64,000 bases of DNA from Romanomermis culicivorax (Eukaryota > Nematoda > Enoplea > Mermithida > Mermithidae), in contig CAWUHX010000294.1 of the NCBI GenBank assembly GCA_963922205.1, forward strand, positions 360,845-424,844. Direction: 5' to 3'. A program made the translations under genes and the position numbers. The notes under the pieces were generated by a model that had not been told where the DNA came from, did not search any database, and worked only from the letters and a program-made list of their open reading frames with translations. Each line of letters starts with the position of its first letter. Position 1 is the first letter of the stretch. Shown here piece after piece: positions 1-22,479 of the stretch.

Positions 1-735
1 GGGTTCGGGTTTGGGAGGTATAAATGGAAGGGTGTTGGACTTTAACTCATTTCTAAGGATTTGCTGTTCAATGTAAGTTGCTTTGTCTGACATTTCTTTT
101 AGGGTTGCAAATCATCTTTACTTAATTGCTTCCCTGATTTCGTTTTGCATGCCTTCTACAAAAAGGGGTTTTATGATCATTTCTCCTGCGTCTGTGTTAA
201 AGTTGGGGTAGGCAAGTGTTGCTAGGTGTTCTAGATCAAACAAGAATTCAGTTACTGTTTCTGATCATTTTTGTTTCCTCTCTCGCAAAAATTGTTGATG
301 AAGCTCATTATCTCGATTGTTTGGGAAAAAGGCCTACAACGCAATTTTATACTGCTCATATGTGTTGGGAGGGTTTTCGGAATTGGCTAAACTTTTGAAT
401 TTTGCTAACGCGGCTCCTCCTAAATGAATCTCTAAGCATGCTAACTTTAACTGTACGTCTGTATCTTTCATGCCTTAGAGTGCCATGAATTGTTCTGAAC
501 GTTTATTCCATTCACCAAAATATTGGGTCAGGCCGCCCATTAATACTGTAGGTTTCACATAAAAATTATTTGCGATGTTATTACGAATGTTTGCTGTTCT
601 TAGATCATCAATTAGGGTAGGGTTTACTGTAATCTGGTTCAGTTGTGTGTGCAGAGTACGAAAATGTTCAGAAAATAAATCATTTATCTGTTCTCTGACG
701 ATTTCTCTTAAATGATCATGCGTTTGGTGGGTCAT
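1..735 (-). pseudogene. gag fragment of an LTR retroelement, broken
   Basis: The minus strand encodes a protein closely similar to the first ~245 residues of the gag at 6424-7596. It begins at the ATG complementary to 733-735 with the same MTHQT start, followed by the REQINDLFSE and NNFYVKP blocks. After residue 86 (..FMAL) a TAA replaces the glutamine codon of the intact copy, and the similarity continues beyond it to the window edge, where the LPFIPPKPEP block is still recognisable. This is therefore a nonsense-mutated copy, cut by the window edge rather than by a natural breakpoint. It lies directly inside the LTR at 980-1877, so it is the 5' part of an element pointing left. Gag would form the particle; this copy cannot make the full protein. 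Confidence 0.85.
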
Positions 736-979
736 TCTTTGTTCAGGCTGGGATTTCTGCTTAAATGCTTCAATTTTTGCTTCACGCTGTATTCGTAAAA
801 ATGTATCGCTTAATGTTTCGTTGGAGGGGATTTCCAGTTTGTTTTCTACGAATGTCTGTCCTACTGTAGGAAATGATTACTACTGTATTATCTGATGCTC
901 GGGGATGCCCGGATAAAGGATGCACCTAACTGGGGCAGGGAGTTCCAGTGGTTAACAGTATGGTACGGTTACCAAAATA
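736..979 (-). other. 5' leader between LTR and gag of the left element
   Basis: This stretch aligns in reverse with 6182-6423 of the intact element. It is the untranslated leader between LTR end and gag ATG, and includes the TTTTGGT segment at the primer-binding position next to the LTR (about 972-979). No independent gene is seen. Confidence 0.7.
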
Positions 980-1877
980 TGTAACGACTAGTTTTTGAAG
1001 CACTTTACTTTATCCTAAAACAGACTGTGGTTACAGTAGGCAGCCCGGGATACCGTAATGAGGGGCGATATGAAATGACAATTGATGGCTGCTTCGGTCG
1101 TCGACAACAAATAAAGAGACAACGCGTATTCCGCTTGCAAATAATAAAACAGACTGGGTTTAACTGCTTTCATATAAAAAGACGCAGCGCTTGCAAATAA
1201 AAACATATTCGTAAACTAAATTGGAAACGAACAGGAACTAACTAAATCACACTTTGCTTCTCTTCAAGTACGGCTTCTTTGGCCACTCCCTGGGTGTCGT
1301 GCGAGGTCTTGCTTCTGTCCATCTTCTTCCGCCAATCGCGGCTTCCTGCTTCGCTATTCTCGCTAATTTGGTCACGCCCTTAAATGCTTTCCTAGTACAG
1401 TGTGCTTTTCGTGTCTTCTCTGTGCTTGCTTCCTACGGTGGGTTTAGCCACACCTCTGTCCTTCTGTGCATGCTTCTGTATCTATTTCCTCTGTGTACAT
1501 ATGTTTTGTGGGACCATCGCTACCGTCCTACTTGAGACTACTGTCTGGCGGGGCTTTTACTTTTTACTGTGTGCAGGTGTTGTTTACGATTTTTATGAGG
1601 AATTACAGTAGCTGTGGAATGTGTATTTTAGTGTAGGTTCTAGGGGACCAGCTGCCGTTGTGCCAATTAATTGGGGCGTCTTAATTGGGTCAATAGCAGC
1701 TACCCGGGTGTGAATGGATCAAAATAAAGTACTTCACATAATTTTACAGGAATGTTTGGGTATGAATCCCAGACACCCTTGAGATGATAAATTATGAAAA
1801 TGGAATAATATTTAATAAATGACTATCACATACAGTATGCTATATATTTACAGTACTGCATTAGCGGGTACGTCACA
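980..1877 (-). repeat. diverged LTR of the left gypsy-like element
   Basis: The ends match the LTRs at 5283-6181 and 13637-14535. In reverse orientation it starts with TGTGACGTACCCGC at 1877 and finishes with GTCGTTACA at 980. The length is 898 bp, against 899 bp for the intact LTRs. The interior is clearly more diverged than those two LTRs are from each other. The next base outward (1878) is unrelated flank. The other end of this element lies beyond the window, so no target duplication can be checked. Confidence 0.85.
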
Positions 1878-4525: not shown

Positions 4526-5282
4526 TAGTAAATCTTGATCTCATATTAGGGCCTGAATCAGGTTTGGAATTTTCGGCCCGACTCAAAAATTTTTTTAAGA
4601 GCCCAAACCCGGCCAGATCCAAAATCGGGCTTTAACCTTGAGGCCCAACCCAGCCCGATTAAAAAAAAACAAGGCCGAAAAGTTCGATTTTAAGACACCG
4701 TTTTTGAGAAAATTCAGCTTCTCGTACAAAGATTTGTGATAGAAAAAAAATTACACTACCTGAAAATCACATATTTTGTGTAACTTGATGCGCGAGAAGC
4801 CAAAATGATATTGAATTCATCTGAAAATCAAAACTCGCATAGCTACAGGAAGACAGAAATTGATAATTTTCAACCTTTTCGATTTTCGACATACAGTTCT
4901 TTCAACTTTTGCAACTTTAGCGAGGCGAGACATCGTGTTCTGAAAATTTACCCAATATAAGGCCAATCGATGGGTCACAATTTACTGTAGGATTCATTGG
5001 TGTAAAGTAAGTATTAAAAATGCAGTGGAGCTCGAAACATGAAATTTTGAAGCTCAAAAGCACCTAAAATTCCCTATTCAATAGATAGTTTACAAGGTCG
5101 TCTACCTGCTGACAAATAAATAGGGAAATTCACCAGTGACTTCTGACATTATCCGATAAACCAAGGGTACCCTACTTTAGCAATTCCTGACTTCAGAAAT
5201 TCACTATAAACTGTCACACTAACTGAATTTGGAGCCATGTCACATTGAGTAAAATTGTGGCCAATCACATTGATGGGAAAAC
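4526..5282. other. GGCCCGA word patch, otherwise nothing seen
   Basis: At 4545-4690 short words such as GGCCCGA, CCCGGCC, ATCGGGC and GCCCGATT are repeated between A/T runs, resembling the subterminal arrays of other elements here. The remainder up to the LTR at 5283 is AT-rich without a supported gene. The last four bases (5279-5282, AAAC) are the left target duplication of the gypsy-like element. Confidence 0.4.
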
Positions 5283-5516
5283 TGTAATGTACCTGCTAAT
5301 GCAGTACTGTAAATATATATAGCATACTGTATGTGATAGACATTTATTAAATAATATTTCATTTTCCTATTTTATTGTCTCAAGGGTGTCTGGGATTCAC
5401 ACCCAAACATTCCTATAAAATTGCGTAAAGTACTTTATTTTGATCCGTTCACACCCCGGTAGCCCAATTAAGATGCCCCAATTAATTTGCACAAACGGCA
5501 GCTGTTCCCCTGGAAC

Positions 5517-5765
5517 CTACACTAAACTACACATTCCACAGCTACCGTAATCCCCCCTAAAAATCGTAAACAACACCTGCACACAGTAAAATACGTAGAA
5601 GCCCCGCCAGACAGTAGTCTCAAGTGTAACGGTAGCCGCAGCCCCACAAAACATGTGTATGCAGAGAAACCGATACAGGAAGCATGCACAGAAGCACAAA
5701 GGTGTGGCTAAGCCCACCGTAGAAAGCAAGCGAAGCACGAAAAGCATACAGTACCAGGAAAGCAT
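5517..5765 (-). other. antisense frame inside the LTR
   Basis: An 82-codon frame rich in Cys, Phe and Leu runs antisense to the element. It is open at the same place in the 3' LTR (13871-14119). The diverged LTR at 980-1877 keeps a related frame (1402-1611, plus strand there) sharing TVGLATPL, FCACF and ETTVWRGFY, but its start codon is GTG. It could be a shadow of LTR conservation rather than a gene. Confidence 0.2.
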
Positions 5766-5879
5766 TAGAAAGGCGTAACTAAGAAAGCATAAAAAGCGTA
5801 GCAGGAAGCGACAATTGGCGGAAGAAGATGGACAGAAGCTCGACCTCCCGCGACGCCCAGGGAGTGGCCAAAAACGTCG

Positions 5880-5887
5880 TATAAAAG
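5880..5887 (+). promoter_or_regulatory. LTR TATA box
   Basis: TATAAAAG lies 597 bp into the 5' LTR and at the identical offset in the 3' LTR (14234-14241), which suits an RNA polymerase II promoter driving the element. The transcription start is inferred to lie some 25-30 bp downstream. Confidence 0.55.
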
Positions 5888-6186
5888 AAGAAGCAAAGCG
5901 TGATTTAGGCAGTTGTTAGATTGTTGTAATCATCTCGCTTTTGATCCGCGGCCGTTCCCTCTATTTGCAAGCAACCGTCTTCGAAAGCAATTGAACCGTG
6001 TTGTGTATTTTATTTGCAAGCAAACGCGCCGTCCATTTTTGTATTGTTGATGTTCAAGCGACCGTCGATCATTCGTGTATTCTCGTATTATCATCACACC
6101 GCGCCCTGTCCCGTTATAGCCGTTCCCGCCGTAACGCTGTTGGTTGAAAGTAAAGTACCTCACACAAATCTGGTCATTACATATTT

Positions 6187-6204
6187 TGGTGACTGTACCG
6201 TACC
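6187..6204 (+). other. candidate primer-binding site
   Basis: TGGTGACTGTACC begins five bases after the LTR end. A TGG start is expected for a site complementary to a tRNA 3' CCA end. I cannot assign the tRNA without a comparison. Confidence 0.45.
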
Positions 6205-6423
6205 GTTAACCACTGGAACTCCCTGCCCCAATTAGGTGTACTCTTATCCGGGCATTTAGAAGCATTAGATAATACAGTAGTAATCATTTCCTACAGTAAG
6301 ACAGTATTCGTAGAAAGCAAACTGGAAATCCCCTCCAATGAAACATTAAGCGATACATTTAAACAAATACAGCCTGAAGCAAAAATTGAAGCATTTCAGC
6401 AGAAATCCCAGCGTAAACCAAGA

Positions 6424-7596
6424 ATGACCCACCAAACGCAAGATCATTTAGGAGAAATCATTAGAGAACAGATAAACGATTTATTTTCAGAATATTTTCG
6501 TACCCTACGCACACAATTGAATCAGAATACAGTAAACCCTACCCTAATAGAAGATCTAAGAACAGCAAACATTCGTAATAACATGGCGAATAATTTCTAT
6601 GTGAAACCTACAGTATTCACGGGCGGTGTGACCCAACATTTTGGTGAATGGAACAAAAGATTAGAACATCTCATGGCACTCCAAAGCATGAAAGATACAG
6701 ACGTACAGTTAAAGTTGGCATGTTTCGAAATTCATTTAGGAGGAGCCGCATTAGCAAAATTCAAAAGTTTAGCCAATTCGGAAAACCCTCCCCACACATA
6801 CAAGCAGTATAAAGTCGCATTACAGGCATTTTTCCCAAACAATAGAGATAATGAGCTACATCAACAATTCTTACGCAAAAGAAAACAAAAGCGTTCAGAA
6901 ACAGTAACTGAATTCTTATTTGATCTAGAACATCTCGCAACCCTCGCCTACCCTAACTTTAACACAGACGCACGAAAAATGATCATAAAACCCCTCTTTG
7001 TAGAAGGCATGCAAAACGAAATCAGGGAAGCAATTAAGTATAGAAGGTTCGCAACTCTAAAAGAAATGTCAGACGAAGCAGCTTACATTGAACAGCAAAT
7101 CCTTAGAAATGAGCTAAAATCTGACGCCCTTCCCTTTATACCCCCAAAACCCGAACCCATCTTTTCCCTAATCAAAAACACAGATCAACAGGATCTTTTG
7201 CATCAGTTAGAACAACAAGTAAAAGATTTACAGTTGCAGATCAAACAAAAACCTCAATCCCCACAACAGAGTAGCTACAACAATTTCAGTAACAATACTT
7301 TCAGCAGGAATAATGCTCACAGGAACAATACCACCCCCAGACAACCCACATGCTTCCAGTGTGGACAAATTGGACACGTAGCTCATAATTGTAAATCAGT
7401 AGGCATCCGAAAATCATGTGAAATCTGTTTCCCTAATAATCACAGTACGCGTGATTGTAAAAGCCGATGCATCCACTGCTCCCAAACAGGACATAGATCT
7501 GATAACTGCCTTTCAAAACCCTACTCCAATTTTCAATTATTTATATGCAAGCAGAGAAGTCATACAAGCAGGTACTGTCCAAATCAACAGTCATAA
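6424..7596 (+). CDS. gag: Gag polyprotein with CCHC zinc knuckles
   Basis: This 390-residue protein is the structural capsid/nucleocapsid protein of the LTR element. Residues ~1-240 form a helical Ty3/gypsy-type capsid region (for example a FGEWNKRLEHL block, and QFLRKRKQKRSETVTEFLFD resembling the retrotransposon gag core). A Q/N-rich linker with a coiled-coil-like QDLLHQLEQQVKDLQLQ segment follows at ~250-280. Three CX2CX4HX4C knuckles start at residues ~310, 332 and 349 (CFQCGQIGHVAHNC type), and a fourth degenerate one lies near 370. The ATG at 6424 is chosen because the broken copy at 735 begins identically. The last ~190 nt overlap the next frame, which lies in the +1 register, so Gag-fusion expression would need a +1 shift. 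The frame is intact, unlike pol. Confidence 0.9.
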   Translation: MTHQTQDHLGEIIREQINDLFSEYFRTLRTQLNQNTVNPTLIEDLRTANIRNNMANNFYVKPTVFTGGVTQHFGEWNKRLEHLMALQSMKDTDVQLKLACFEIHLGGAALAKFKSLANSENPPHTYKQYKVALQAFFPNNRDNELHQQFLRKRKQKRSETVTEFLFDLEHLATLAYPNFNTDARKMIIKPLFVEGMQNEIREAIKYRRFATLKEMSDEAAYIEQQILRNELKSDALPFIPPKPEPIFSLIKNTDQQDLLHQLEQQVKDLQLQIKQKPQSPQQSSYNNFSNNTFSRNNAHRNNTTPRQPTCFQCGQIGHVAHNCKSVGIRKSCEICFPNNHSTRDCKSRCIHCSQTGHRSDNCLSKPYSNFQLFICKQRSHTSRYCPNQQS

Positions 7597-10423
7597 TATT
7601 CAAAATTGCATTGAGTACAGGCAACCCCAACCTCTCATGGACATTGATGACCCCACATTTTACTCAAAATTACCCGCCATAACTAATGGCCCTCAGACTA
7701 CTTTAGGAACCATTTTGCCCACTACCCATCGCGGTAGTGACGAATACGTCCTCAACCTGGACGTACCCGATTGGTGGGCCATGTCACCACCCCCCACGCC
7801 TGAAGGGGCAAAAATCGAAAAGTCGCCGCCCACCATCCCTGTAGGCTACAAGATCCCCCGCAAGCAAGACACAAAGCCGCCCACCGCCCCCGAAACCCCA
7901 CCGAAAGCAGGCCGCAACTTATTGTCCCTTCTACACAACCTGACCCCTGAACCCTACCAATTTCACCCCGGCCAAACACTTCTACTGACCCCCACAAGTA
8001 AGCAAGTCCAAACCCCATCCCATGATTCAACTTCTAAAATTTTACAGACTGTTCAGATTTCAAACCAGCCACCCCCTCAACCCAAAACTGAACAACACCA
8101 AAAGCTGCCAGGCCAAACCGGCCACAACGAAAACATACAGTGCCCCGCCGCCTCCACTAAAACATTCTATTGGCCGATGTTTTGTATTTTTCTTTGTATA
8201 ATAATCCCCACATCGTGTACTGCCCAATTTCAGATGTGTGGAACTTCATTGAGCGGTCACTCAGTCAGCATACCAAAACTTGTATCATGTATGCCCCCTT
8301 CCACAACAGACAAACCCATACAGACATTCCGAAAAATCTATATTCCCTCCACTAAGCCTCACATTACAGATGCATACAAATGCAGTGTTCGCAAACGGAA
8401 AATTTGTACTAATACAGGATTTTTTGGATCAAAAGGTATTGTCTTCGACCAAACCGAAATGCATAATCTAACCCCGCATGTTTGTAAGGCAATCGTTATA
8501 GACAATGAACACAATGGTCAAAAATTAAATGAAACCCAACCAGGATTTTGGTCAACAAACAACTCCCTAAGCGTAGAATACACATGGTGTTGTACAGACC
8601 ATTGTAGCTTGGTCACTAACGTCATCATAGAAATAGGACAAATATCATCTTGGAATGGAAAATCTATGACAGGTACATTAGGTGACCTGGGGTCATGCAA
8701 ACCGACATCAGGTCATTGTGTAACAACTGACGGATCCATTATCTGGAATGAAACAGCATTTGAAAACTTATGCCCCTTCGAATACAAAAATACACATCCC
8801 ATCAAATCCACGCAAACCCACATGATAATAGAAGAGCTACAAGGTACATTCTCGGTTAAACACACACTCTTTTCGAACCCCAATTGCCCAGAAATCCAAG
8901 ACAGCATTCTAACCGAACAAGGCATTATTGTACTATTAGACAAAAGCACACCACATGGTAACGCATTTTTAACCCCAAAAACCAACGAAACCCATACTAC
9001 AATCTACGATTTTGATGATTTTGAACCCATTAATGTGAAACTAAACTATCTAGCAGACAAAATCCAGGAATTCGAAATTCAAAATTTCAAAAATGTATGG
9101 AGTGAATTATGCAGACAGGCACAGTGTCACCTTGATCTCGTATGGCAAATTTTGCGCCTTGATGCAACCCTTGGGGCGCGTGCATTCCTACAGCCAACCG
9201 ACATAGTAGCAGAATTTACAGGAGAAGCCCTCACAGTCTGGCCCTGCAAGCAGGTAAATGCATCTAAAATCTTTTACAACCACAAAATCAACCAAACATG
9301 CTACAAACTTTTGCCCATCTTGGTAGGAACCAAACTCATGTTTTCAAATCCAGGAGGCAACAATTTGACCCCTTTTTCACAAACCGCTGACTGCCATCAT
9401 ATGCATGTAGCCCTTTACGAACAGAATAATTTATGGGTCAGTGAAACAGGATCCCCCCCCCCATGTCACAAATTTACCTTTAGAAATCGTCTGGAACCAA
9501 AATTTCTCCCTTTCCATTTTAATACACCCGCCATTTTTCATGATCAACTTGCAACTATTTCAACCAACTTACTCTTTTTGAAACAATACATTCACAAAAC
9601 TCACACACTCGGAAATGTTGTTAAAAAACTCTTCAATTACACCGCCCAAATGTCCCTTAACTCGGATACAGTTTACAATATGATCTCAGGCACTGGTCAA
9701 GCAATCGGAAATACCCTCTCTGGCGCCGGTCAAGGCATAAAACATGTAATAACCGGTACCACCCAAAGTCTCACAGACGGATTAAACAATTTACTCAAAG
9801 GGCCCCTGCAAATCATTATCAATCTAGCCGTTATTACTGTAGTTATTGCAGGCGTCTTTTATTCTTTTCTCGTTCTCCGGAAATATTTCCCCTCTCCAAA
9901 GCACCATGCCACAACTGAACATGCATATGAAATACCATCAAACAACAGACGTCTACATGAGACTATGCCCCCATCATTCGGCCATGCTCTCTTAGAATTA
10001 GCTAATCGTCGTGGGGCACAAACGCAACAGAAATACATCCTTGTCGATATTGATACCCCCCGAACTCCTGCAATCGAACTCATTAATCAAATTCATCAAT
10101 CTGGATCAAACAAGCCACCCCAAAATGTACCTGAGAAACATACCCCTCATATTCCAATCACACTTAACGGCAAATTAATCACAAAAGGCATGATTGATAG
10201 TGGTGCAGTCTACTCTCTCATTGATTCACGCATCGCTCAAATTTTGCAGTTAGACATGAAACCCCCGCTAGTCCAAGCAAAAGCAGCAAATAATCTCCCG
10301 ATTCACTTTGTAGGAACCACTTTTGTCACAGTGACAGCTCAAACGATACAGGAAACAATAATGGTCCATGTCCAAAAAGATTGCACAGCAGACATCCTTC
10401 TAGGCAAAAACTTTCTCAGCTGA
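7403..10423 (+). CDS. envelope-like glycoprotein fused to aspartic protease
   Basis: The frame is open from the TAG at 7400-7402 to the TGA at 10421-10423. It has no ATG in the gag overlap (first ATG 7637), so a +1 shift from gag or internal/spliced initiation is needed. Numbering residues from 7418, ~1-245 is a Pro/Thr/Gln-rich linker. A hydrophobic stretch at ~251-268 (FCIFLCIIIPTSCTA) looks like an internal signal peptide with a plausible cleavage site. About 265-795 is a Cys-rich ectodomain with several N-X-S/T sites. A transmembrane helix lies at ~799-822 (NLAVITVVIAGVFYSFLVL), followed by a basic tail. A retropepsin domain is at ~900-1000 with the DSGA active-site motif at 927 and a late ILLGKNFL block. 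The ectodomain family is not identified. A class III-like viral fusion protein is only a guess. The frame has no internal stop. Confidence 0.8.
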   Translation, partial: ASENHVKSVSLIITVRVIVKADASTAPKQDIDLITAFQNPTPIFNYLYASREVIQAGTVQINSHNIQNCIEYRQPQPLMDIDDPTFYSKLPAITNGPQTTLGTILPTTHRGSDEYVLNLDVPDWWAMSPPPTPEGAKIEKSPPTIPVGYKIPRKQDTKPPTAPETPPKAGRNLLSLLHNLTPEPYQFHPGQTLLLTPTSKQVQTPSHDSTSKILQTVQISNQPPPQPKTEQHQKLPGQTGHNENIQCPAASTKTFYWPMFCIFLCIIIPTSCTAQFQMCGTSLSGHSVSIPKLVSCMPPSTTDKPIQTFRKIYIPSTKPHITDAYKCSVRKRKICTNTGFFGSKGIVFDQTEMHNLTPHVCKAIVIDNEHNGQKLNETQPGFWSTNNSLSVEYTWCCTDHCSLVTNVIIEIGQISSWNGKSMTGTLGDLGSCKPTSGHCVTTDGSIIWNETAFENLCPFEYKNTHPIKSTQTHMIIEELQGTFSVKHTLFSNPNCPEIQDSILTEQGIIVLLDKSTPHGNAFLTPKTNETHTTIYDFDDFEPINVKLNYLADKIQEFEIQNFKNVWSELCRQAQCHLDLVWQILRLDATLGARAFLQPTDIVAEFTGEALTVWPCKQVNASKIFYNHKINQTCYKLLPILVGTKLMFSNPGGNNLTPFSQTADCHHMHVALYEQNNLWVSETGSPPPCHKFTFRNRLEPKFLPFHFNTPAIFHDQLATISTNLLFLKQYIHKTHTLGNVVKKLFNYTAQMSLNSDTVYNMISGTGQAIGNTLSGAGQGIKHVITGTTQSLTDGLNNLLKGPLQIIINLAVITVVIAGVFYSFLVLRKYFPSPKHHATTEHAYEIPSNNRRLHETMPPSFGHALLELANRRGAQTQQKYILVDIDTPRTPAIELINQIHQSGSNKPPQNVPEKHTPHIPITLNGKLITKGMIDSGAVYSLIDSRIAQILQLDMKPPLVQAKAANNLPIHFVGTTFVTVTAQTIQETIMVHVQKDCTADILLGKNFLS

Positions 10424-12255
10424 TTCTCGGAATATACTATCAACAATCAAAAATCTCAGGTCAAATTTGGCAATGTCATACTACCCTGTGATGGCCTAGA
10501 ATATAGCCCCCTTTCGACCCGTGGTGGTACCTATCTTGACAAAAAATTAGAATTACCACCCCGTACAGTCACTGAATTTACTGTCCCCTTGCCCAAATCG
10601 TACTCACAGGTCAAACAGCTTGAATTCACCCCGAAACCCAAACAGAATCCTAAAGTCCATTTTGCAGCCTGTATCTCTGAAAACCAAAACAGTCGCATAC
10701 GCATATCCATCCTAAACACACAAGAAACAGCCCAAATTCTTTACCCTGGAACATGTATTGGTACAGTCTCATGTTACATCCTAAAACAAGATGCTTCCAC
10801 TAATGTAACCCCCTCCACGCAAAACCAGCTCAACCATTTTGATACATTCACATGGTTATAAGAAAAGGTTAATTTAACCTCCAGTGACCTGACAGAAGCA
10901 GAAAAAACACAACTCCTACACGCCCTATCGAAGTATCCTACATTATACGCTAAATCCAAAATGGATGTAGGTAGAACCACCCTCGTTTCACATACAATTG
11001 ACACCAATGGCTCCCAATGTGTACGTAGACAACTTTATTGGACTTCCCCAAAAGAAAAGCAAATCATACAAGCAGAAGTTGAGCAACTCGCAGCAGCAAG
11101 TGTAATAAGCCAGAGCAATTCTCCATGGTGTACCAACACAGTTTTAGTCCCCAAAAAAGATGGAGGCCAAATGTATGCATTGATTTTATAGGCCTTAACA
11201 AAGTCACCAAAAAAGATACATACCCCTTGCCCCGTATAGACGAAATTCTAGACACCCTACGTGGAATGAAATATTTTACGTCCCTCGATCAATCCAATGC
11301 ATATTATTCCATTCCCATAGCACAAGCAGACAGAGAAAAAACAGCCTTTAATTGCTCAGCCGGCCAGTATCAATTCAATTACCTCCCCTTTGGACTCAAC
11401 AATGCCCCAGCCACCTTCCAAAGGCTAATGGATGTTATTCTTTCGGGCTTGCAATGGAACACATGCCTTGTATATCTCCACGATGTTTTGGTATTTGCAG
11501 ACTCCCATGCCCAAATGCTGGAACGTTTAGACACTATTCTTGCCGGATTCTCACAAGCAGGCCTTAAGCTAAACATACAAAAATGCAAATTCTGCCAGCC
11601 CCAAGTCCAATACTTAGGCCACATCATTTCTCAGCAAGGCATTTCACCAGATCCCCATAAGGTACAGGCCATCTATGACATACCCAGGCCCAAAAGCTCA
11701 AAAGAAGTTAAGTCATTCCTTGGCCTACCTTCTTATTATCGTAGATTCATCCCAAATTGCTCTCAAGTTTCTAGCCCACTCACATCGTTACTCAAAAAGA
11801 ATTCCGAATCTTCGTGGGGCCCCGAACAGCAAAACGCATTCACCAAGCTAAAAGAAATACTCATTCATGCCCCAATACTGCAGCATCCCGATTTCACAAA
11901 ATCATTCATTCTGCAAACTGATGCCTCAAAACTCAGAATTGGCGCCATTCTCAGTCAGCTAGATAGTAAAGGTCAGGATCACCCCATTGCTTTTGGGAGA
12001 TACACATTGAAACCCGCAGAACGCAACTACCCGATAACCGATTTAGAAACCCTTGCAGTAGTTGAGTTTGTCAAGTACTTCCGCCCCTACCTTTTCCAGC
12101 AACATGTTATTGTACACACTGACCATACAGCAGTTCAAGCAGTCTTACAAAAGGAAAACCCGTCCCCTCGCATTGCCCGTTGGGGATTAGCCCTCCCTGG
12201 TATTCAGCTAGACATTCGCTCGATTCCCCTCACAGACAGCGAAGCAATCCTTTGA
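10424..12255 (+). pseudogene. pol: reverse transcriptase-RNase H, inactivated
   Basis: The protease frame continues after the TGA at 10421-10423, meets a second in-frame stop (TAA 10859-10861), and runs to a TAG at 11189-11191. It carries the pre-RT linker and the start of RT (SPWCTNTVLVPKKDGG). At about 11160-11172 the coding register shifts, and RT continues in another frame from CIDFIGLNKVTKKDTYPLPR through LDQSNAYYSIPI, FNYLPFGLNNAPATFQRLMD and the polymerase motif. That motif reads YLHD (11476-11487), so the first catalytic aspartate of YxDD is a histidine. RNase H follows with LQTDASKLRIGA, an ITDLETLAVV block and HTDHTAVQAV. The frame closes at 12253-12255 near another register change. 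These are at least two stops, two register changes and one catalytic substitution. Ty3/gypsy assignment is secure. Confidence 0.9.
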
Positions 12256-13240
12256 TATTGAGCAATTAGAAACCCGCCCTGAAATATCCACCATCAATTC
12301 GGTCCTGGAAGCTGAAGCAACTGAACAAGAAGAGCAACAGAAAAACTTTGCCAAACTCCAACGCACTGATCCAACTGTAAAAAGTATTTTCGCGAAAATC
12401 GCCCAAAAACACCCCCTTACTCTGATCAAATTCGCAGTCGACCACAACATTCTCTTCCGTATAGTCGACAAACAGGCAAAACAATACATTCCCATGTCCC
12501 AGGTCCAGCACCTCATTGCCTCTCACCATGACAGCAAATTCACAGGTCATTTTGCTGCCAGGAAAACTTTACACTTGCTCAGACAAAAATATTTTTGGCC
12601 CCAAATGAGCCATGATATCAAACGTTACTGCAAAACTTGCCACCCATGCCAGACACAGAGAGCCCTCCGACACAAAATACATGCAAATCTCGTACCAATT
12701 CAGCCAACTGGCCCATTTGATAGAGTGGGTGTTGATTGCATGGGACCATTACCCCTCACTGAAGACGGCAACCGATTCATTGTCGTTTTCATCGATTATT
12801 TCACAAAGTATGTAGAGGCATTCCCGACCCCTGACATCACTGCAGCCACTATTGCCAAGCTATTCATAACCAAAATTGTTTGCTGTCATGGGTCCCCAAA
12901 AATCATCCATTGTGATCGTGGCTCCGATTTTGTCTCGGATCTCTTCTCACGGATAACTAGTTTATGCAATACTCAGAAAATTCATACCACCCCATACCAT
13001 CCCACTGCGTATGGGGAAGTTGAGCGTTGCAACCAGACCTTAGCCACCCGTATCCGCATGTACATCAATTCAAATCACACTGATTGGGATACTTATCTGC
13101 CCTATGCCATTTTTTCGATCAACATTCATAAAAATGATAGCACCTCGTATCCCCCATTTGAATTACTCCACGGTAGGCAAGCTAATCTGCTGTCAGACGC
13201 AGCCTTAAATTTTTCCCCACCTCCTACATGGTTGATTTAG
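12242..13240 (+). pseudogene. pol: integrase zinc and catalytic domains
   Basis: In a register different from RNase H, this frame encodes the connection region and a gypsy-type integrase. The HHCC zinc module is HLIASHHDSKFTGHFAARK ... YCKTCHPCQ. The DDE core has VGVDCMGPLP, HCDRGSDFVSD and GEVERCNQTL carrying the two aspartates and the glutamate. The core itself looks undamaged, but it is cut from RNase H by a register change near 12210-12255 and closed by the TAG at 13238-13240 before its C-terminal domain. Confidence 0.88.
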
Positions 13241-13605
13241 ACGATTACGCCCTTGGTGTAGAATCACATTTTACAGAAGCGCTCTCAACCGTGCAGAAAA
13301 GCTTTCAAAAAGCACAAGACCACTATACCCGTCAGTATAACAAGCATGCTCAGAACATACATTACAAGGCAGGTGATCTTATTCTGTACAAAAATCATTC
13401 GTGTAAACAAGGGCTGACTCCCAAATTCCTCCCTCCCCAAAATGGGCCCTATACAGTTACAAATTTCATGTACCCCAATGTTACACTTAAACACCCCCAT
13501 AAAAATATCAGATTTATGGTGCATGTAAACGAGACAACCCCTTTCTACCCTCGGAAAGCAACTATCGAATCTACTCCCACCCCTCCTCAACCTCGAAAGC
13601 CTTGA
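13228..13605 (+). pseudogene. pol: integrase C-terminal domain, out of register
   Basis: This frame overlaps the previous one by a few codons and continues integrase after another register change. It contains FQKAQDHYTRQYNKHAQN and the GPY/F-type module (YKAGDLILYK ... FLPPQNGPYTVTNF). It ends in a Pro-rich tail just before the purine tract. No env-like frame lies after it. Confidence 0.85.
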
Positions 13606-13620
13606 ACGAGGACGTTCAAC

Positions 13621-13636
13621 TCCCAAAGGAGGGAAA
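13621..13636 (+). other. polypurine tract
   Basis: TCCCAAAGGAGGGAAA directly abuts the 3' LTR, as expected for the plus-strand primer of an LTR element. Confidence 0.75.
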
Positions 13637-14535
13637 TGTAACATACCTGCTAATGTAGTACTGTAAATATATATAGCATACTGTATGTGATAGACATTTA
13701 TTAAATAATATTTCATTTTCCTATTTTATTGTCTCAAGGGTGTCTGGGATTCACACCCAAACATTCCTATAAAATTGTGTAAAGTACTTTATTTTGATCC
13801 GTTCACACCCTGGTAGCCCAATTAAGATGCCCCAATTAATTTGCACAAACGGCAGCTGTTCCCCTAGAACCTACACTAAACTACACATTCCACAGCTACC
13901 ATAATCCCCCTTAAAAATCGTAAACAACACCTGCACACAGTAAAATACGTAGAAGCCCCGCCAGACAGTAGTCTCAAGTGTAACAGTAGTGGCGGCCCCA
14001 CAAAACATGTGTATACAGAGAAACCGATACAGGAAGCATGCACAGAAGCACAAAGGTGTGGCTAAGCCCACCGTAGAAAGCAAGCGAAGCACGAAAAGCA
14101 TACAGTACCAGGAAAGCATTAGAAAGGCGTAACTAAGAAAGCATAAAAAGCGTAGCAGGAAGCGACAATTGGCGGAAGAAGATGGACAGAAGCATGACCT
14201 CCCGCGACGCCCAGGGAGTGGCCAAAAACGTCGTATAAAAGAAGAAGCAAAGTGTGATTTAGGCAGTTGTTAGATTGATGTAATCCTCTCGCTTTTGATC
14301 CGCGGCCGTTCCCTTTATTTGCAAGCAACCATCTTCGAAAGCAATTAAACCGTGTCGTGTATTTTATTTGCAAGCAAACGCGCCGTCCATTTTTGTATTG
14401 TCGACGTTCAAGGGACCATCGATCATTGGTGTATTCTCGTATTATCATCACGCCGCGCCCCGTCCCGTTATAGCTGTTCCCACCATAACGCCGTTGGTTG
14501 AAAGTAAAGTACCTCACACAAATCTGGTCGTTACA
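13637..14535 (+). repeat. 3' LTR
   Basis: Starts TGTAACATACC and ends GGTCGTTACA; 899 bp, colinear with the 5' LTR with about 34 base differences counted by eye. TATA box at 14234-14241. The following AAAC (14536-14539) is the right target duplication. Confidence 0.93.
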
Positions 14536-14589
14536 AAACCTATGCCATATTGATAGAAAATACAGCCATGTCACTGTGAGTGACATGCT

Positions 14590-17098: not shown

Positions 17099-18893
17099 CA
17101 GGGTTGGCAAAAACCAAACTTTGGAAATTTCGACTTTTTGGTTTTTTGGTTTTTTAGTGGTTTTTCTATGGTTTTTTATGGTTTTTTAATGGTTTTTTTC
17201 TGGTTTAATTCTTTAGAATGTTTGGTACATCAAAATAACTATGTAAAAAACTGCTGGAAGCTCCCTGTATCATCTAAGACTAGTTAGGGAGCAGTAAAAT
17301 GGCAGCTAGAAGTATTAATCTTGCTTATAAGAAATCCCTATTAAGCAATAGAAATACAGTAATAGTGGGCACATAAGAAAGGAACCATTAGTGAAGAACA
17401 TAAGAAAAGTAAAAATGGAACAGAGCATGCGATATGTAAAGGGCAAATTCAAAGAAAAGAAGAAAAATTACAAATAAAGAGAAATATACATTACACAAAG
17501 TAAGTATTCAAAACTCAAAAGAAATCAACTACAGAAATGTATCAATGCATCTTACATATACTTATGCACAGAAAAGTTGAAATGACACTATACCATTTTC
17601 GATAAGAGGGTTTTAACTTGATGGATTATTACATATTTTATTAATATTACAAACTGCAGTTGAAAGTCACACATAGACATTTCAGATGTTTCCAAATTTT
17701 TGCTTTTCAAACCTGTCTGCGAGCTATAACTACAGCAAATCGGTCTTGTTATATATATTATTCTCGCTTGCATGATAGATACATATTTTTGTACGATTTT
17801 TTTCTACCTAGTAGTGACGTCAAGTCACATAAAAATGGGCCACTCAAAAGCTCTTCTCTTTGTTAACCTACAGTATGCTCAAATGATCTGTATAAAATTT
17901 TATTATTGTTGTCTCATTTATATTTTGAAATTTCGAGCTAAGAAAATTAAAAAGCTTACCGTAACAATAAAATCAGTTATTAAACTCAATCATGTTTCAT
18001 AACATTTTGATGATGATATGGATCAATGGATGTCACCCCGTATGGTCGGAGTCATACATGTAACGGAGCTCCGAGGTCTGGGGGGGGGGGGGTTGGAGCA
18101 CTTTTTTGGGGCCGGGGGTCAGTGATTCCCAAAATTTTGGGGGGAGGGGTCCCTGAAGGAGAAAAAAATTCGATTTTTTCCATGAAAAATGTCCGAAAAC
18201 GGTTTAAAAAGTAGTAATTTTTGTCTAAAAAATGATAAAATATGTACTTATGGCGCGAAGCGCCGAGAAAATTGACGTTTTTGACCATTTTTTGCTCGAA
18301 AATTGACATTTTTCATAGAAAAAATGACATTTTTCAGTAATTTTCCGACTAAAACTATGGGGGTCCCTAGGGCTACCATATGGCTAGCCATAGGATTGGA
18401 AAATCCTGGGGGGGCGGTCGCCCAATGGCTAGCTATATGGTCGACGATTTCTGGGGGGGGGGGGGTTCCCATAGCACTTCCCCCCCCCAATTACATGTAT
18501 GGTCGGAGTACACTCCACAAAAGATTTAGTGTCTACTTTTTTGTGAGCAAATTATAGCAAAGTTGACTCATGTACTAAATGTGTGGTTGCAAGATGGATA
18601 CAAAGGATATCGATTGATTTATATTACATCTTTTGAGTACGAAATGTATCATAAAAATACGACTTTTTTCTACTTTGTAATGAAGTCAATTCAACTCAAT
18701 TAATAGTTTTGTTGATTTAGATAGACACCAATACATGCCTAGAAGATCGACTAATGTGAAAAAACACTTTCCCAATGATTTTGGAAAAAAACCAAAAAAA
18801 CCAAAAAACCAGAGATTTTCCAATTTTTTGGTTTTTTTAAAAAACCAAAAAAAAAACCAAAAACCAAAGCCTTGCCAACCCTGACCAAAATGC
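17099..18893 (+). mobile_element. hAT-like element B1, nested in C1
   Basis: Ends are CAGGGTTGGCAAAAACC and GGCAAGG-type inverted ..CCTTGCCAACCCTG. A perfect 8-bp duplication ACCAAAAT flanks it (17091-17098, 18894-18901). Both subterminal regions are built of GGTTTT / AAAACC words (17140-17215 and 18785-18870). Copy B2 (23130-24440, opposite orientation) is the same element without the inserted A1. No transposase is detectable. Confidence 0.9.
18053..18501 (+). mobile_element. MITE family A, copy A1, nested in B1
   Basis: 449 bp between CATACATGTAA and TTACATGTATG, flanked by GTCGGAGT on both sides (18045-18052, 18502-18509). The B2 copy of the host element has an uninterrupted site at the corresponding position (about 23500-23540), which confirms both ends. 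It holds a CTAGCCATATGG / GGTCGACGATTTCTGG block, G and C runs, and the hairpin GGCGCGAAGCGCC at 18252-18264. Confidence 0.92.
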
Positions 18894-19832
18894 ATCTTTT
18901 CAATATGAAAACCCCAAATTTTTCTTCCACATTTGTGGAAAGACCTCAAAAATTTTTTCCACATTCCAGATTTTTTTTCCACATTATAGTGCAAATGTGG
19001 AAAAAAACAGTGTGGACGATTGGCCGAAATTACTCTCAGTGTTGCCAAGTTAGGGGTTTTTTTCCCAAATCTATGGGTTTTTCGAGGGCGTTGAGGTTTT
19101 TCTAGGGGTTTTTTCTTTTTATTTTTGAGGTTTTGGGGGTTTTTCAACGAATTCGCTTGCTTGAGTGTTGTGTGCTTGATGGAGAATTACTGTATAAAAT
19201 AAGAAAAAAGCGTGATGAAATTGAAAAAATGAAAATCGAAATGGATATTGATTGAATAGTGTGGCCAGTTTGTGTATTTTACAATTAAATTAGCATATTT
19301 TTGGCTCAATTACCAAATTTTGACTTTTGGTGCAGCGTGTTTTTTTCCAAAAAATTTTTCCCCAAGTGGGGAAGAAAGACTCTAAAAATGTTTTGCTAAA
19401 GTAATAATAAAACTGTATGAATTTAGTGTATAGAAGCACTGAAAAAACATTAAAATTTGATCAATCGCGGCTAAGTAGTTACGTACATAAGACTATGTGC
19501 TAATTTATTTGGTATTTTATATAATGCCACGAAGCAGCCGAAAGTATTTATTTTACCCCATTAAAGTACATTCAAGTTTAAAATGCTAATCTAGGGGAAG
19601 TTGATAAAAACTTTTTCCCCATGTGGCTAATAGTGCTGAAATTTTTTCTCTTTTTTCCAAAATTTTTTTCCCAAAATAAACGTTTTGGTGAAAAACATGC
19701 TGGTTTGGTGTAAAAATACTCTGTTGACATGTTTGGGACGGTGTGCACACTGCATATTCTTTTAGAGATAGAATAAACAGTTTTTCGAAATTTGGATTTT
19801 TGGATTTCGTGGGCTTTTTGCTGGGGTCTCTT

Positions 19833-20310
19833 CATACCTGTACTTGGCATACCTGTACTTGGGAGGGGGTTGGGGGGACCCCCCCCCCCCCAACTCGGCC
19901 AACCCTGTACCCAAAATCATTTCCCCCCCCCCACCCCCCTCCAGTTTGGAAAAAAAAAATTTCAAAAAAGTGTATGTTTTTTGGCCTTTTTTGGGAAAAA
20001 TTTAGACTTTTTCCTATCCCCCCCCCAAAAAAAATTTCGGATTTACCCCCCCCCCCCCCCAACTGGTCGGAGGTCTTACAGGTATGGTACTTGGGGGGGA
20101 CCCCACCAACTCGACCAACCCTGTACCCAAAATCATTTCCCCCCCCCCCCCCAACCCCCCCTCCCCAGTTTGGAAAAAATTAAAAAAATTTTCCAAAAAG
20201 TGTATGCTTTTTGGCCTTTTTGGGAAAAATTTCGACTTTTTCCTACCCCCCCAAAAAATTTCGGATTTACCCCCCCCCCCCCCCAACTGGTCGGAGGTCT
20301 TACAGGTATG
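19833..20310 (-). repeat. G-family tandem cluster
   Basis: Two near-complete G units in tandem (boundary near 20086) follow a short duplicated start (CATACCTGTACTTGG twice, 19833-19862). Each unit has a C-run, a block meaning 'ccaaccctgtacccaaaatc', an A/T core and GGTCTTACAGGTATGG. The Pro-rich and Gly-rich frames here are artefacts of the C and G runs. No clean target duplication was found for the cluster. Confidence 0.7.
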
Positions 20311-20598
20311 GTATGGACAGTGTTTTTTCTGCACAGTGCAGACTTTTTAGGCTTCGTGCAAAATTTTTTTCGGTGATTTCTGCACTGGTGCAGAATTTTT
20401 TTTGTCTTTGTCTTTCATTACATATATTCTTCTATAATGTGCCAGTCATTGATTCTGAACCTTTAAAATCAATTATTTTTCTTATTTTAAGATTTTAAAA
20501 TGTCTTGTAAAAAAACTATTAAATCGTTCAAATTTAACATTGAATTACACATTCAATTTGCATTTTTACTATATCCACTATTATTCTCTTGGAGCGGA

Positions 20599-21537
20599 CA
20601 CTGTTTTTCTCCAAAATCGTTCTTTTTTGGAAAAATTCAGAAAAGGAAAAAATTTTCGGCTCTTACCCCATTCGGGGAAGAAAATTTTGGGGATCTGATA
20701 CAGAAAAGATGCATTTTGGTGCATTTTAGAAGGTCATAACCTCGAAATTTCCCTTCAATAATCATTATTATGTATCAATTAGCTCAGGCGCGACTTTTAG
20801 CATGTCTACCTTCACTTATCACTTTATGTATATAATAGTTTTCATCATCTTAAACGTATTATCTTATGTTTGTTTCAATTGGTAATCTTCAATATTTTAT
20901 CCTGATATTTAATGAAGATACGCATTTTTTTCCCTGACACATTTTTTGAGAAAGATCAATATGTCAAGAACTTTTTGAAGTGACTATGCCTTTCTTAACG
21001 TGAAATAAATTCAAAAGCTTCATGGAATTAGTTTTCGAAATTTCTACTCTTCTTACTCATTTCTTTTCGATCAAGTTCATGAGACTTTACGAATAAATTA
21101 CTGGTTTTAAAATTTTTTGACAACGTTTGAACACAAAATTCAAATCGAATTCTTGAAATAAATTTTCGGAAAATTGATTTTCCAGCGTTGCAGAATGTCA
21201 GTGCCCAAAAAAATTTCTGGCGCCTAGCGCCGGAAAGATTAATATCTTTTTTCGGCCTCTCACTTGACATCATAGGGGACTTAAGTGTCGATTTCTTATG
21301 TAATTCAAAGTCAGTATGCTCCTGGGTAGTTTGCTGGAAAGTTTGCTTGTAAATTAATGCTTGTAGATTAGACCTCGATCAAACTCGAAAATTTCAATTT
21401 TCCCCTCAATTTTGATAAATTAACGGCTCTAAAAACACCAGAAGGTTTGAAAAAGTTCAAAAACACGTAAATAAGGAATCTATAAGCATTTTTAAGCGAA
21501 AAAAACGACTTCGGGAAAAAAGAAAAAAATTTTGCTG
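20599..21537 (-). mobile_element. C-family element C2, inverted, inside D
   Basis: The left end CACTGTTTTTCTCC matches the C terminus. The body is the reverse complement of C1, including TGGCGCCTAGCGCCGG at 21219-21234 and the CTTACTCAT and CACTTGACATCATAG blocks. The right end is eroded (..AAAATTTTGCTG), and the flanking octamers agree poorly, so the right limit is approximate. Confidence 0.7.
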
Positions 21538-21753
21538 GATGCAGAAGGCTTATAAGTTAGAGATTTTATGTGTATTTGTGCAAGCACTGCAACCTGAAGC
21601 TTAGGCTTCATTTAAGAAGCTTCTAACTAAATTTGTGAATCTTTTCAAAGTTAAAACATACATGTTTAATCTAGTTTGATCTTTGAAGTTAGAAACCCGC
21701 AATTTTCTGACTGTATTGTTGGACAGTATTCTATGTATGCAATATGGCTTGGC

Positions 21754-21899
21754 CAGGGCCGTGCACAAGAGCGGGCGGGGGGCGCCCCCCATCGAGGCAG
21801 CATACAAAGAGTGTATCGCGTAAAATCCACATTTTCTGGGGCTATTCAGTAAAAAAATTTAGTCCGCCCCTCCATGAAAGAATCCTGCGCACGGCTATG
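21754..21899 (+). mobile_element. 146-bp hAT-like MITE P
   Basis: Starts CAGGGCCGTGCACAAG and ends ..CTGCGCACGGCTATG. A perfect 8-bp duplication GGCTTGGC flanks it (21746-21753, 21900-21907). GC-rich ends and no coding potential. It is one of the smallest complete elements in the window. Confidence 0.85.
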
Positions 21900-22479
21900 G
21901 GCTTGGCTTTAAGGAATGAAAGTTGTAACTCTTTTACTGTAAGAAAACCTATGTTGAAAAAATTTACGTCGGGCATGTTTGGTGCAGCAATCGGCTGAAT
22001 GTGATGATGAAGATGAAATTCTGCAGCTAGCAGCTGAATAAAGTTGTTGATTCTTAATAAACTTATGCTTGATTTATTTTTTCATCTATGAATTGAATTT
22101 ATTCTCTTTTCAAAAATTGGGGTTTTTCTAGGGGTTTTCAAAAAATTTTGAGGTTTTCTAGGGTTTTTTTGGAACGATTGAGGTTTTTTTGAGATTTTTT
22201 GGCGGAAAAATTGGGGTTTTTGAAGGCGACTACTTGGCAACACTGATTACTGTCCTCTTGTTCATTGGTCAAAATTTTTGAGATGTCGAAAATGCATTAT
22301 ATGCGTTTTAAATGGTTTTAACTAACAACTTCATTTGGAAGAGCCTGTACCCTAAGCCTAAGCCTAAGGAAAAATTAATGAAAAATACATATTAAACGAA
22401 AAACCGTCTGGGGGGGCGGTAATTTCGGCCAATCACAAGAGGGCTAACACTTCGTCCCTTATGCTTAGTCTCTTCTTCA

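What the first reader, a model, noticed from the sequence alone, without database searches (positions are those of the whole stretch)
7403..10423. Envelope-like glycoprotein encoded between gag and protease, in frame with protease
Seen: one uninterrupted ~3-kb frame holds a Pro-rich linker, an internal signal-like hydrophobic segment, a ~530-residue Cys-rich and N-glycosylation-rich ectodomain, a transmembrane helix and then a retropepsin DSGA domain. Known: gypsy, errantivirus and retrovirus env follows integrase; here nothing env-like follows integrase. Inference: the element captured a viral fusion glycoprotein in an unusual place. If translated as a fusion, the glycoprotein would be a lumenal loop with Gag and protease-Pol on the cytosolic side. 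Spliced expression is the alternative.
Basis: partly seen in the sequence, partly recalled or inferred. Interest (0 to 1): 0.88.

Follow-up and report, generated by a model that had tools for sequence, protein, structure and literature searches.

The report
Envelope gene fused inside Gag-Pol
A recently active retrovirus-like element of a mosquito-parasitic nematode carries a virus-type membrane-fusion protein in the middle of one giant protein, between its capsid and its enzymes, instead of as a separate gene at the end.

Summary
Confirmed. Window 7403-10423 is one open frame: linker, internal signal-like segment, Cys- and glycan-rich ectodomain, transmembrane segment, retropepsin, inside a decayed Ty3/gypsy-type LTR element (5283-14535). 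The order is no rearrangement. In the host genome (size and contig count match Romanomermis culicivorax v2), 46 of 72 scored copies have frames of at least 2400 codons. In 30 fetched loci, window included, protease is in the env frame in 30, gag in 24, and no stop separates Env from protease in any. Twenty of 20 sampled sister copies keep LTR pairs, 18 at 99% identity or more. Five of 5 copies picked by RT also have env upstream of RT; nine env lineages are 32-58% identical. The ectodomain is class III by profile: Pfam Monjiviricetes_fusion in 10 of 10 aligned proteins; nine of nine PDB hits herpesvirus gB (best 6e-4). A structure model failed. Selection is strong (ectodomain shared-variant pN/pS 0.03). 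So sister copies seem to encode one Gag-Env-Pol polyprotein, probably processed at the ER as flavivirus polyproteins are; splicing is not excluded. Position has one precedent that I found (planarian Burro); a compact Ty3/gypsy element with a class III Env there appears new.

The parts
5279..5282 (.). target-site duplication AAAC, left copy
   Evidence: sequence beside the LTRs
5283..6181 (+). 5' LTR, 899 bp, TGTAA...TTACA
   Evidence: 865/899 identical to the 3' LTR
6424..7596 (+). gag (first ATG 6424; open frame 6193-7596), Retrotrans_gag and CCHC zinc knuckles
   Evidence: Pfam PF03732 4.9e-6, PF00098 8.4e-5
7586..8155 (+). linker between the zinc knuckles and env; read in the gag and env frame in most sister loci fetched
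   Evidence: shared-variant pN/pS 0.16 in the env frame
8177..8224 (+). internal signal-like hydrophobic segment ending in a small-residue motif
   Evidence: the cleavage site is inferred by the recalled -3,-1 rule
8225..9805 (+). lumenal/extracellular ectodomain, class III fusion glycoprotein by profile; putative fusion loops about 8405-8449 and 8537-8608
   Evidence: PF24664 5.7e-15, gB in PDB, loop conservation; the label fusion loop is mine
9806..9877 (+). transmembrane segment
   Evidence: hydropathy maximum
9878..10153 (+). predicted cytosolic tail joining Env to protease without a stop
   Evidence: open frame; no stop between transmembrane segment and protease end in 30 of 30 loci
10154..10423 (+). 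retropepsin (DSGA)
   Evidence: PF13975 1.6e-6
10424..10861 (+). protease-RT spacer, faint dUTPase-like match
   Evidence: PF04797 E 0.047, below cut-off
11083..12255 (+). reverse transcriptase and RNase H
   Evidence: PF00078 3.6e-33, PF17919 5.1e-35; best PDB relative Ty3 RT, 1.6e-75
12212..13605 (+). integrase, in two frames in this copy; that 13186-13605 is its C-terminal part is inferred from position
   Evidence: PF17921 3.6e-20, PF00665 2.1e-8 in 12212-13240; frame change near 13186-13240
13625..13636 (+). polypurine tract
   Evidence: sequence directly before the 3' LTR
13637..14535 (+). 3' LTR
14536..14539 (.). target-site duplication AAAC, right copy
   Evidence: sequence beside the LTRs

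Best explanation
This is a decayed member of a recently active lineage of Ty3/gypsy LTR elements in a nematode genome that matches Romanomermis culicivorax. Intact sister copies appear to encode one polyprotein, Gag-linker-Env-Pro-RT-RH-IN. Env is, by profile, a class III fusion glycoprotein of the chuvirus/gB type. Shown: fixed order, gag C-terminus to RT N-terminus in one frame, conservation, purifying selection, copies with identical LTRs. Inferred from frame length: RNase H and integrase in the same frame. Inferred mechanism: a ribosome on unspliced RNA reaches the internal signal and docks on the ER. Env is threaded into the lumen between signal and transmembrane segment, while Gag (before) and Pol (after) stay cytosolic. 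Signal peptidase separates Gag-linker from Env, and the element's protease cuts Pol from Env's tail. This is how flavivirus-type polyproteins (capsid, envelope, protease, polymerase) are made (recalled). Because no stop lies between Env and protease, Env is born as an Env-Pol fusion, so Pol may enter particles as Env's cytoplasmic tail.
For: Open frames of at least 2400 codons in 46 of 72 scored copies, 18 of them exactly 2486 (one of the 46 has a TGA inside the match). In 30 fetched loci, window included: gag wholly in the env frame in 24, protease in 30, no stop between transmembrane segment and protease end in any, 21 open over the whole locus. The linker is constrained in this frame: shared-variant pN/pS 0.16, 13N/25S. 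Ectodomain shared pN/pS 0.03 (8N/75S) against pro-RT 0.02 (5N/69S) and gag 0.11 (14N/31S). 16 Cys and 9 sequons kept in 21 of 21. Gag, env and protease in one frame in 4 of 6 divergent loci fetched by PF24664 (two families; two of the four have one stop in gag or linker), env 39-51% identical to the window's in alignment A3. Env upstream of RT in 5 of 5 RT-picked copies. Exactly two strong hydrophobic segments in four families. Twenty of 20 sampled sister copies keep LTR pairs, 3 identical, 18 at 99% or more; 17 of 20 have matching 4-bp duplications. Class III.
Against: No RNA, protein or topology data. The pN/pS rests on 18 of 21 open copies taken from the 30 best env matches, so it is biased towards intact copies. 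Linker singletons give 0.52. In two other families single pairs give env pN/pS 0.09 (5N/16S) and 0.48 (9N/5S). Two acceptor-like sites 107 and 116 nt before env keep their AG in 18 of 18 copies, so a spliced env mRNA is possible. One ORF gives equimolar Gag and Pol, unusual for a budding element (recalled). The AlphaFold2 model failed (pLDDT 30.7). The integrase end of the frame was not read in a sister copy.
Confidence: 0.7

Rival explanations
1. Env is made mainly from a spliced, or spliced-leader trans-spliced, subgenomic mRNA starting at the Met just before the signal segment, as errantiviruses and retroviruses do. The single frame is incidental or serves only gag-pol.
For: Acceptor-like sites 116 and 107 nt upstream keep their AG, and an in-frame ATG right before the hydrophobic core is kept, in 18 of 18 open copies.
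Against: The ATG position is not shared between families: in the other loci read, the nearest in-frame Met lies 6 to 72 residues before env start, and one locus has none upstream in its open part. The shortage of ATGs in the linker is not significant. The linker evolves as in-frame coding sequence. Such an mRNA would still make an Env-Pol fusion, since no stop follows Env in 30 of 30 loci. None of 30 env loci lacks gag upstream, so no spliced-type retrocopies were seen in that sample.
Confidence: 0.25
2. The env segment is a passenger inherited by a rearranged master copy and has no function.
For: The window copy is broken in several places.
Against: Ectodomain shared pN/pS 0.03, near that of pro-RT; all ectodomain Cys and sequons kept in 21 of 21 open copies; nine env lineages 32-58% identical, each an open stretch upstream of protease or RT.
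Confidence: 0.03
3. Env is translated but serves a membrane or cell-cell role inside the host (for example spread between soma and germline) and not virion entry.
For: Class III proteins can fuse cells (recalled); the element has amplified inside one genome.
Against: No direct test; strong constraint is expected under both readings.
Confidence: 0.2

Closest known systems
Burro / GYPSM1 giant gypsy elements of planarians (PMC6431247, passages and section 7 read)
   Same: Env in frame between Gag and protease in one ORF; the authors call it the first such case; gypsy-like pol. Their env region also hit fish and arthropod mononegavirus glycoproteins, which might mean chuviruses (my guess).
   Different: Internal region up to 25 kb with many host-like domains, against a 7.5-kb internal region in which none was found; env described there through gypsy Env homology; planarian host.
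Anakin (BEL/Pao with chuvirus glycoprotein, mosquitoes; PMC7642597, passages and section 18 read)
   Same: Chuvirus-type glycoprotein captured by an LTR element, amplified by retrotransposition.
   Different: BEL/Pao pol; here RT is Ty3-like. The passages read describe GAG-PR-RT-RH-INT elements with or without a glycoprotein, and put the envelope proteins of three other BEL-Pao elements downstream of the polyprotein.
Errantiviruses (gypsy, ZAM and the like)
   Same: Ty3/gypsy pol plus an Env; host-genome element.
   Different: Their env is a separate 3' gene, spliced, class I (recalled); here class III by profile and inside gag-pol.
Flaviviridae polyprotein strategy (analogy only, recalled)
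   Same: Capsid, internal signal, lumenal envelope, membrane return, cytosolic protease and polymerase in one polyprotein.
   Different: No homology claimed; this is an LTR retroelement.

Membership tests
Ty3/gypsy (Metaviridae) | PR-RT-RH-IN order | tested here: met
   Pfam order in the window
Ty3/gypsy (Metaviridae) | RT closest to Ty3 among solved structures | tested here: met
   4ol8 1.6e-75, 7q5b 1.7e-75; next 8r0s 2.5e-52, retroviral RTs from 2.2e-28
Ty3/gypsy (Metaviridae) | LTRs with TG...CA ends, polypurine tract, short TSD | tested here: met
   TGTAA...TTACA; 4-bp TSD in the window and 17 of 20 sister copies; polypurine tract
Errantivirus | env after integrase | tested here: not met
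   31 bp between the last pol frame and the 3' LTR
Errantivirus | class I (F-like) Env | tested here: not met
   no class I family among Pfam matches at E 0.1 or among PDB matches at E 5
Anakin | BEL/Pao polymerase | tested here: not met
   RT nearest Ty3 among solved structures; no BEL/Pao RT was compared directly
Anakin | chuvirus-type glycoprotein | tested here: met
   PF24664 in 10 of 10 aligned env proteins
Burro | env in frame between gag and protease | tested here: met
Burro | giant internal region with BIR, MATH, BCL2 and similar domains | tested here: not met
   7.5-kb internal region; no such Pfam match in the window frames
Burro | dUTPase-like domain between protease and RT | tested here: inconclusive
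   E 0.047 (window) and 0.0024 (L084), both below cut-off; not seen in L011, L083 or L085
Burro | RT kinship to Burro | not testable with these tools
   no Burro sequence was at hand
Class III fusion glycoproteins | sequence-profile homology | tested here: met
   PF24664 above cut-off; 9 of 9 PDB hits gB, best 6.1e-4, two below 1e-3
Class III fusion glycoproteins | trimeric class III fold | tested here: inconclusive
   AF2 pLDDT 30.7, not usable
Class III fusion glycoproteins | membrane fusion activity | not testable with these tools
   needs a bench test

The most novel reading that the evidence does not exclude
A whole lineage of LTR retroelements has abandoned both Gag-Pol recoding and spliced env. 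It makes one Gag-Env-Pol polyprotein with a lumenal class III fusogen, and packages reverse transcriptase and integrase as the cytoplasmic tail of the envelope protein.
Probability: 0.35. Interest if true: 0.92.

Novelty: new variant of a known kind. Interest (0 to 1): 0.78.

Why it matters
Retroviruses and env-bearing retrotransposons are taught as gag-pol-env with env on its own spliced mRNA. A constrained, recently active lineage with a fusogen inside Gag-Pol would show a second workable design, with virion assembly coupled to ER translocation. It makes testable how Pol can be packaged without Gag-Pol recoding. It would also extend chuvirus-type glycoprotein capture to Ty3/gypsy elements: the authors of PMC10084718 (passages read, among them the abstract) found no clear evidence of that in the genomes they screened.

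Tried and rejected
Structure prediction of Env from a six-row alignment gave pLDDT 30.7, and no fold search was run on it. Scans of viral contigs with env and RT, and of genome contigs with both, found no relatives. Two env protein searches found only P0001, named Romanomermis culicivorax and so probably the host's own, and P0002, on a 1383-bp contig labelled Gammaproteobacteria. The first PDB searches found no relative (nothing; two unrelated chains at E 1); one search gave gB at 0.023, a ribosomal protein at 0.051 and ORF8 at 0.075, with more lineages, gave nine gB hits. A shortage of ATGs in the linker as evidence for splicing was not significant. 2A-like NPGP and RX[KR]R sites: none in the five pieces searched. 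Troyka (PMC12440569) was rejected: its ends are CG...CG with 3-bp TSDs. The gag column used a query in the wrong frame and was replaced. L086 has a stop in the env stretch that I gave and was left out of the alignments. L016, L022 and L035 were dropped from pN/pS because they differed from the rest by more than 15% without gaps, which I took for indels shifting the columns. A search for env-less gypsy copies with the window's own gag or RT did not complete, so env-less relatives elsewhere in the genome are not excluded. The eLife 2025 paper on envelope-carrying retrotransposons is not held, so it was not read.
Full report
What is there. The window holds one LTR element, complete in outline but decayed, at 5283-14535, flanked by a 4-bp target-site duplication AAAC. 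Its LTRs are 899 bp and 865/899 identical. From 5' to 3': gag with zinc knuckles, the finding's frame, RT-RNase H, integrase, a polypurine tract and the 3' LTR. The finding's frame, 7403-10423, is open for 1006 codons. Pfam places a viral fusion glycoprotein, Monjiviricetes_fusion, at residues 431-683 (5.7e-15), and a retropepsin at 918-1006 (1.6e-6). After the last pol frame only 31 bp remain before the 3' LTR.

The arrangement is not a chance rearrangement. A search of the window's own genome with the whole frame scored 46 copies, and with the env piece 72; first-look candidates were 6079 and 4766, so both are lower bounds. In 46 of the 72 the open frame is at least 2400 codons, and in 18 it is exactly 2486 (numbers copied); one of the 46 carries a TGA inside the match. 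Of the 30 env loci fetched, the window copy included, 21 are open over the whole locus, protease lies in the env frame in 30, no stop lies between the transmembrane segment and the end of protease in any, and gag lies wholly in the env frame in 24. The gag/env frame overlap seen in the window is a lesion of this copy; another copy, L002, has a lesion of its own at the same boundary. The fetched loci run from gag into RT. That RNase H and integrase follow in the same frame is inferred from the frame lengths: 2486 codons is 7.46 kb, and gag to the end of integrase in the window is 7.41 kb.

The lineage was recently active. I sampled 20 of the 72 copies down the list. All 20 have an LTR pair at the expected distance, 3 pairs are identical, 18 are at least 99% identical (gaps not counted), the lowest is 95.2%, and 17 show a matching 4-bp duplication. 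The window pair, at 96.2%, is among the older ones.

The arrangement is also old. A Pfam PF24664 search of the genome scored 68 matches, of which I read six. Their env is 35-51% identical to the window's in tblastn. Gag was found upstream in 5 of 6. Protease was found downstream by tblastn in 5 of 6, and weakly by Pfam in the sixth (0.0023). Gag, env and protease share one frame in 4 of 6, which are two families; two of these four have one stop in gag or linker, one further locus is frameshifted, and in the last gag was not found. To avoid choosing by env, I searched with a relative's RT: 104 matches were scored and I read stretches upstream of five. Env is there in an open frame in 5 of 5; in four of them only env itself was read, in the fifth env runs on into protease. 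Nine env lineages of this genome are 32-58% identical to each other.

Env is a class III fusion glycoprotein by profile. All 10 proteins of alignment A4 match PF24664, 8 match bornavirus G (best 1.4e-8), 3 match herpesvirus gB (best 2.3e-5) and 1 matches the rhabdovirus fusion domain (0.093). A profile of the ten searched against all PDB chains gave nine hits up to E 5, all gB: eight are named glycoprotein B, and the ninth is named ORF8, which I recall as a gammaherpesvirus gB. The best E-value is 6.1e-4 and two are below 1e-3. Shallower alignments had given no relative, or gB at 0.023 beside one unrelated chain at 0.051. Two loops, around GFFGSKG and W-STN before a conserved WCC, are largely kept across the lineages and are candidate fusion loops; that label is mine. 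AlphaFold2 on six rows failed (pLDDT 30.7), so the fold itself is not shown.

Env is under selection. Among 18 open copies, variants shared by two or more copies give pN/pS 0.03 for the ectodomain (8N/75S), 0.02 for pro-RT (5N/69S), 0.11 for gag (14N/31S) and 0.16 for the linker (13N/25S); singletons give 0.11, 0.13, 0.15 and 0.52. All 16 ectodomain Cys and all 9 sequons are kept in 21 of 21 open copies. Limits: the copies are the best env matches and were chosen for open frames, three of 21 were dropped, and single pairs from two other families give env 0.09 and 0.48 on small counts.

How it most likely works. In four families with both ends covered, the readable frame has exactly two strong hydrophobic segments, one just before and one just after the ectodomain, 541-555 residues apart. 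The linker evolves as coding sequence in the gag/env frame, so a ribosome on unspliced RNA should pass from gag into the signal. I infer ER docking, a lumenal Env, cytosolic Gag and Pol, signal-peptidase release of Gag-linker, and protease release of Pol. This is the logic of flavivirus polyproteins (recalled), presumably reached independently. No stop lies between Env and protease in 30 of 30 loci, so even a spliced env mRNA would make Env-Pol unless pol too is spliced out. Splicing stays open: two acceptor-like sites 107 and 116 nt upstream keep their AG in 18 of 18 copies, but the Met before the signal is not shared between families.

Host. The held genome has 359,112,060 bases in 595 contigs. 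PMC10879605 (passages) gives 359.1 Mb and 595 scaffolds for Romanomermis culicivorax v2, a mermithid nematode that parasitises mosquito larvae. An R. culicivorax protein, P0001, is 76% identical to the L085 family's env. The identification rests on these matches.

What is known. PMC6431247 (passages and section 7) describes env in frame between gag and pol in planarian Burro elements as the first case. PMC7642597 (passages and section 18) describes Anakin, a BEL/Pao element with a chuvirus glycoprotein. PMC10084718 (passages) reports no clear capture of such glycoproteins by Gypsy elements in the genomes screened. Of my ten library searches, one returned no paper; in the listings of the others no title or abstract start named another env between gag and pol, but listings do not show the full texts. 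Besides the papers above I saw the outline and the first of five text parts of PMC12440569 (Troyka), and passages of PMC10309623, PMC13172572, PMC8556966 and PMC10989877. So the position has a precedent; a compact single-ORF Ty3/gypsy lineage with a class III Env, found in nine env lineages and recently active, I judge a new variant.

Noticed in passing
window 1-1847: A second copy of the same element on the minus strand, cut by the window start: gag part 89% complementary to 6306-7158, then an LTR.
   Followed up: no
L088 about 1568-1976 and 2561-2918 (G000:C307): The family with frames of about 3100 codons has two retropepsin-like DTG domains between Env and RT, 21% identical (E 5e-4); the first is a weak Pfam match (0.0079), the second a good one (1.8e-7).
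   Followed up: partly
G000:C180 404-17640; G000:C122 529088-539320: Env matches spaced 8365 bp (three on C180) and 8409 bp (two on C122), as expected for tandem copies sharing LTRs.
   Followed up: no
window 17099-24440: Long inverted repeats, most arms 93-96% complementary (17174-18853 against 23158-24397).
   Followed up: no
L084:3238-4401; window 10424-10861: Faint dUTPase-like matches between protease and RT (0.0024; 0.047), the place where Burro has one.
   Followed up: partly
window 11083-12255: The RT catalytic YxDD motif of this copy is altered against a relative, one more sign that the copy is dead.
   Followed up: no
P0002: The only env relative found outside this host sits on a 1383-bp contig labelled a Gammaproteobacteria MAG; probably eukaryotic DNA binned wrongly.
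   Followed up: no
host: The host parasitises mosquito larvae, and mosquitoes carry Anakin elements with chuvirus glycoproteins (PMC7642597); whether there is a link was not tested.
   Followed up: no
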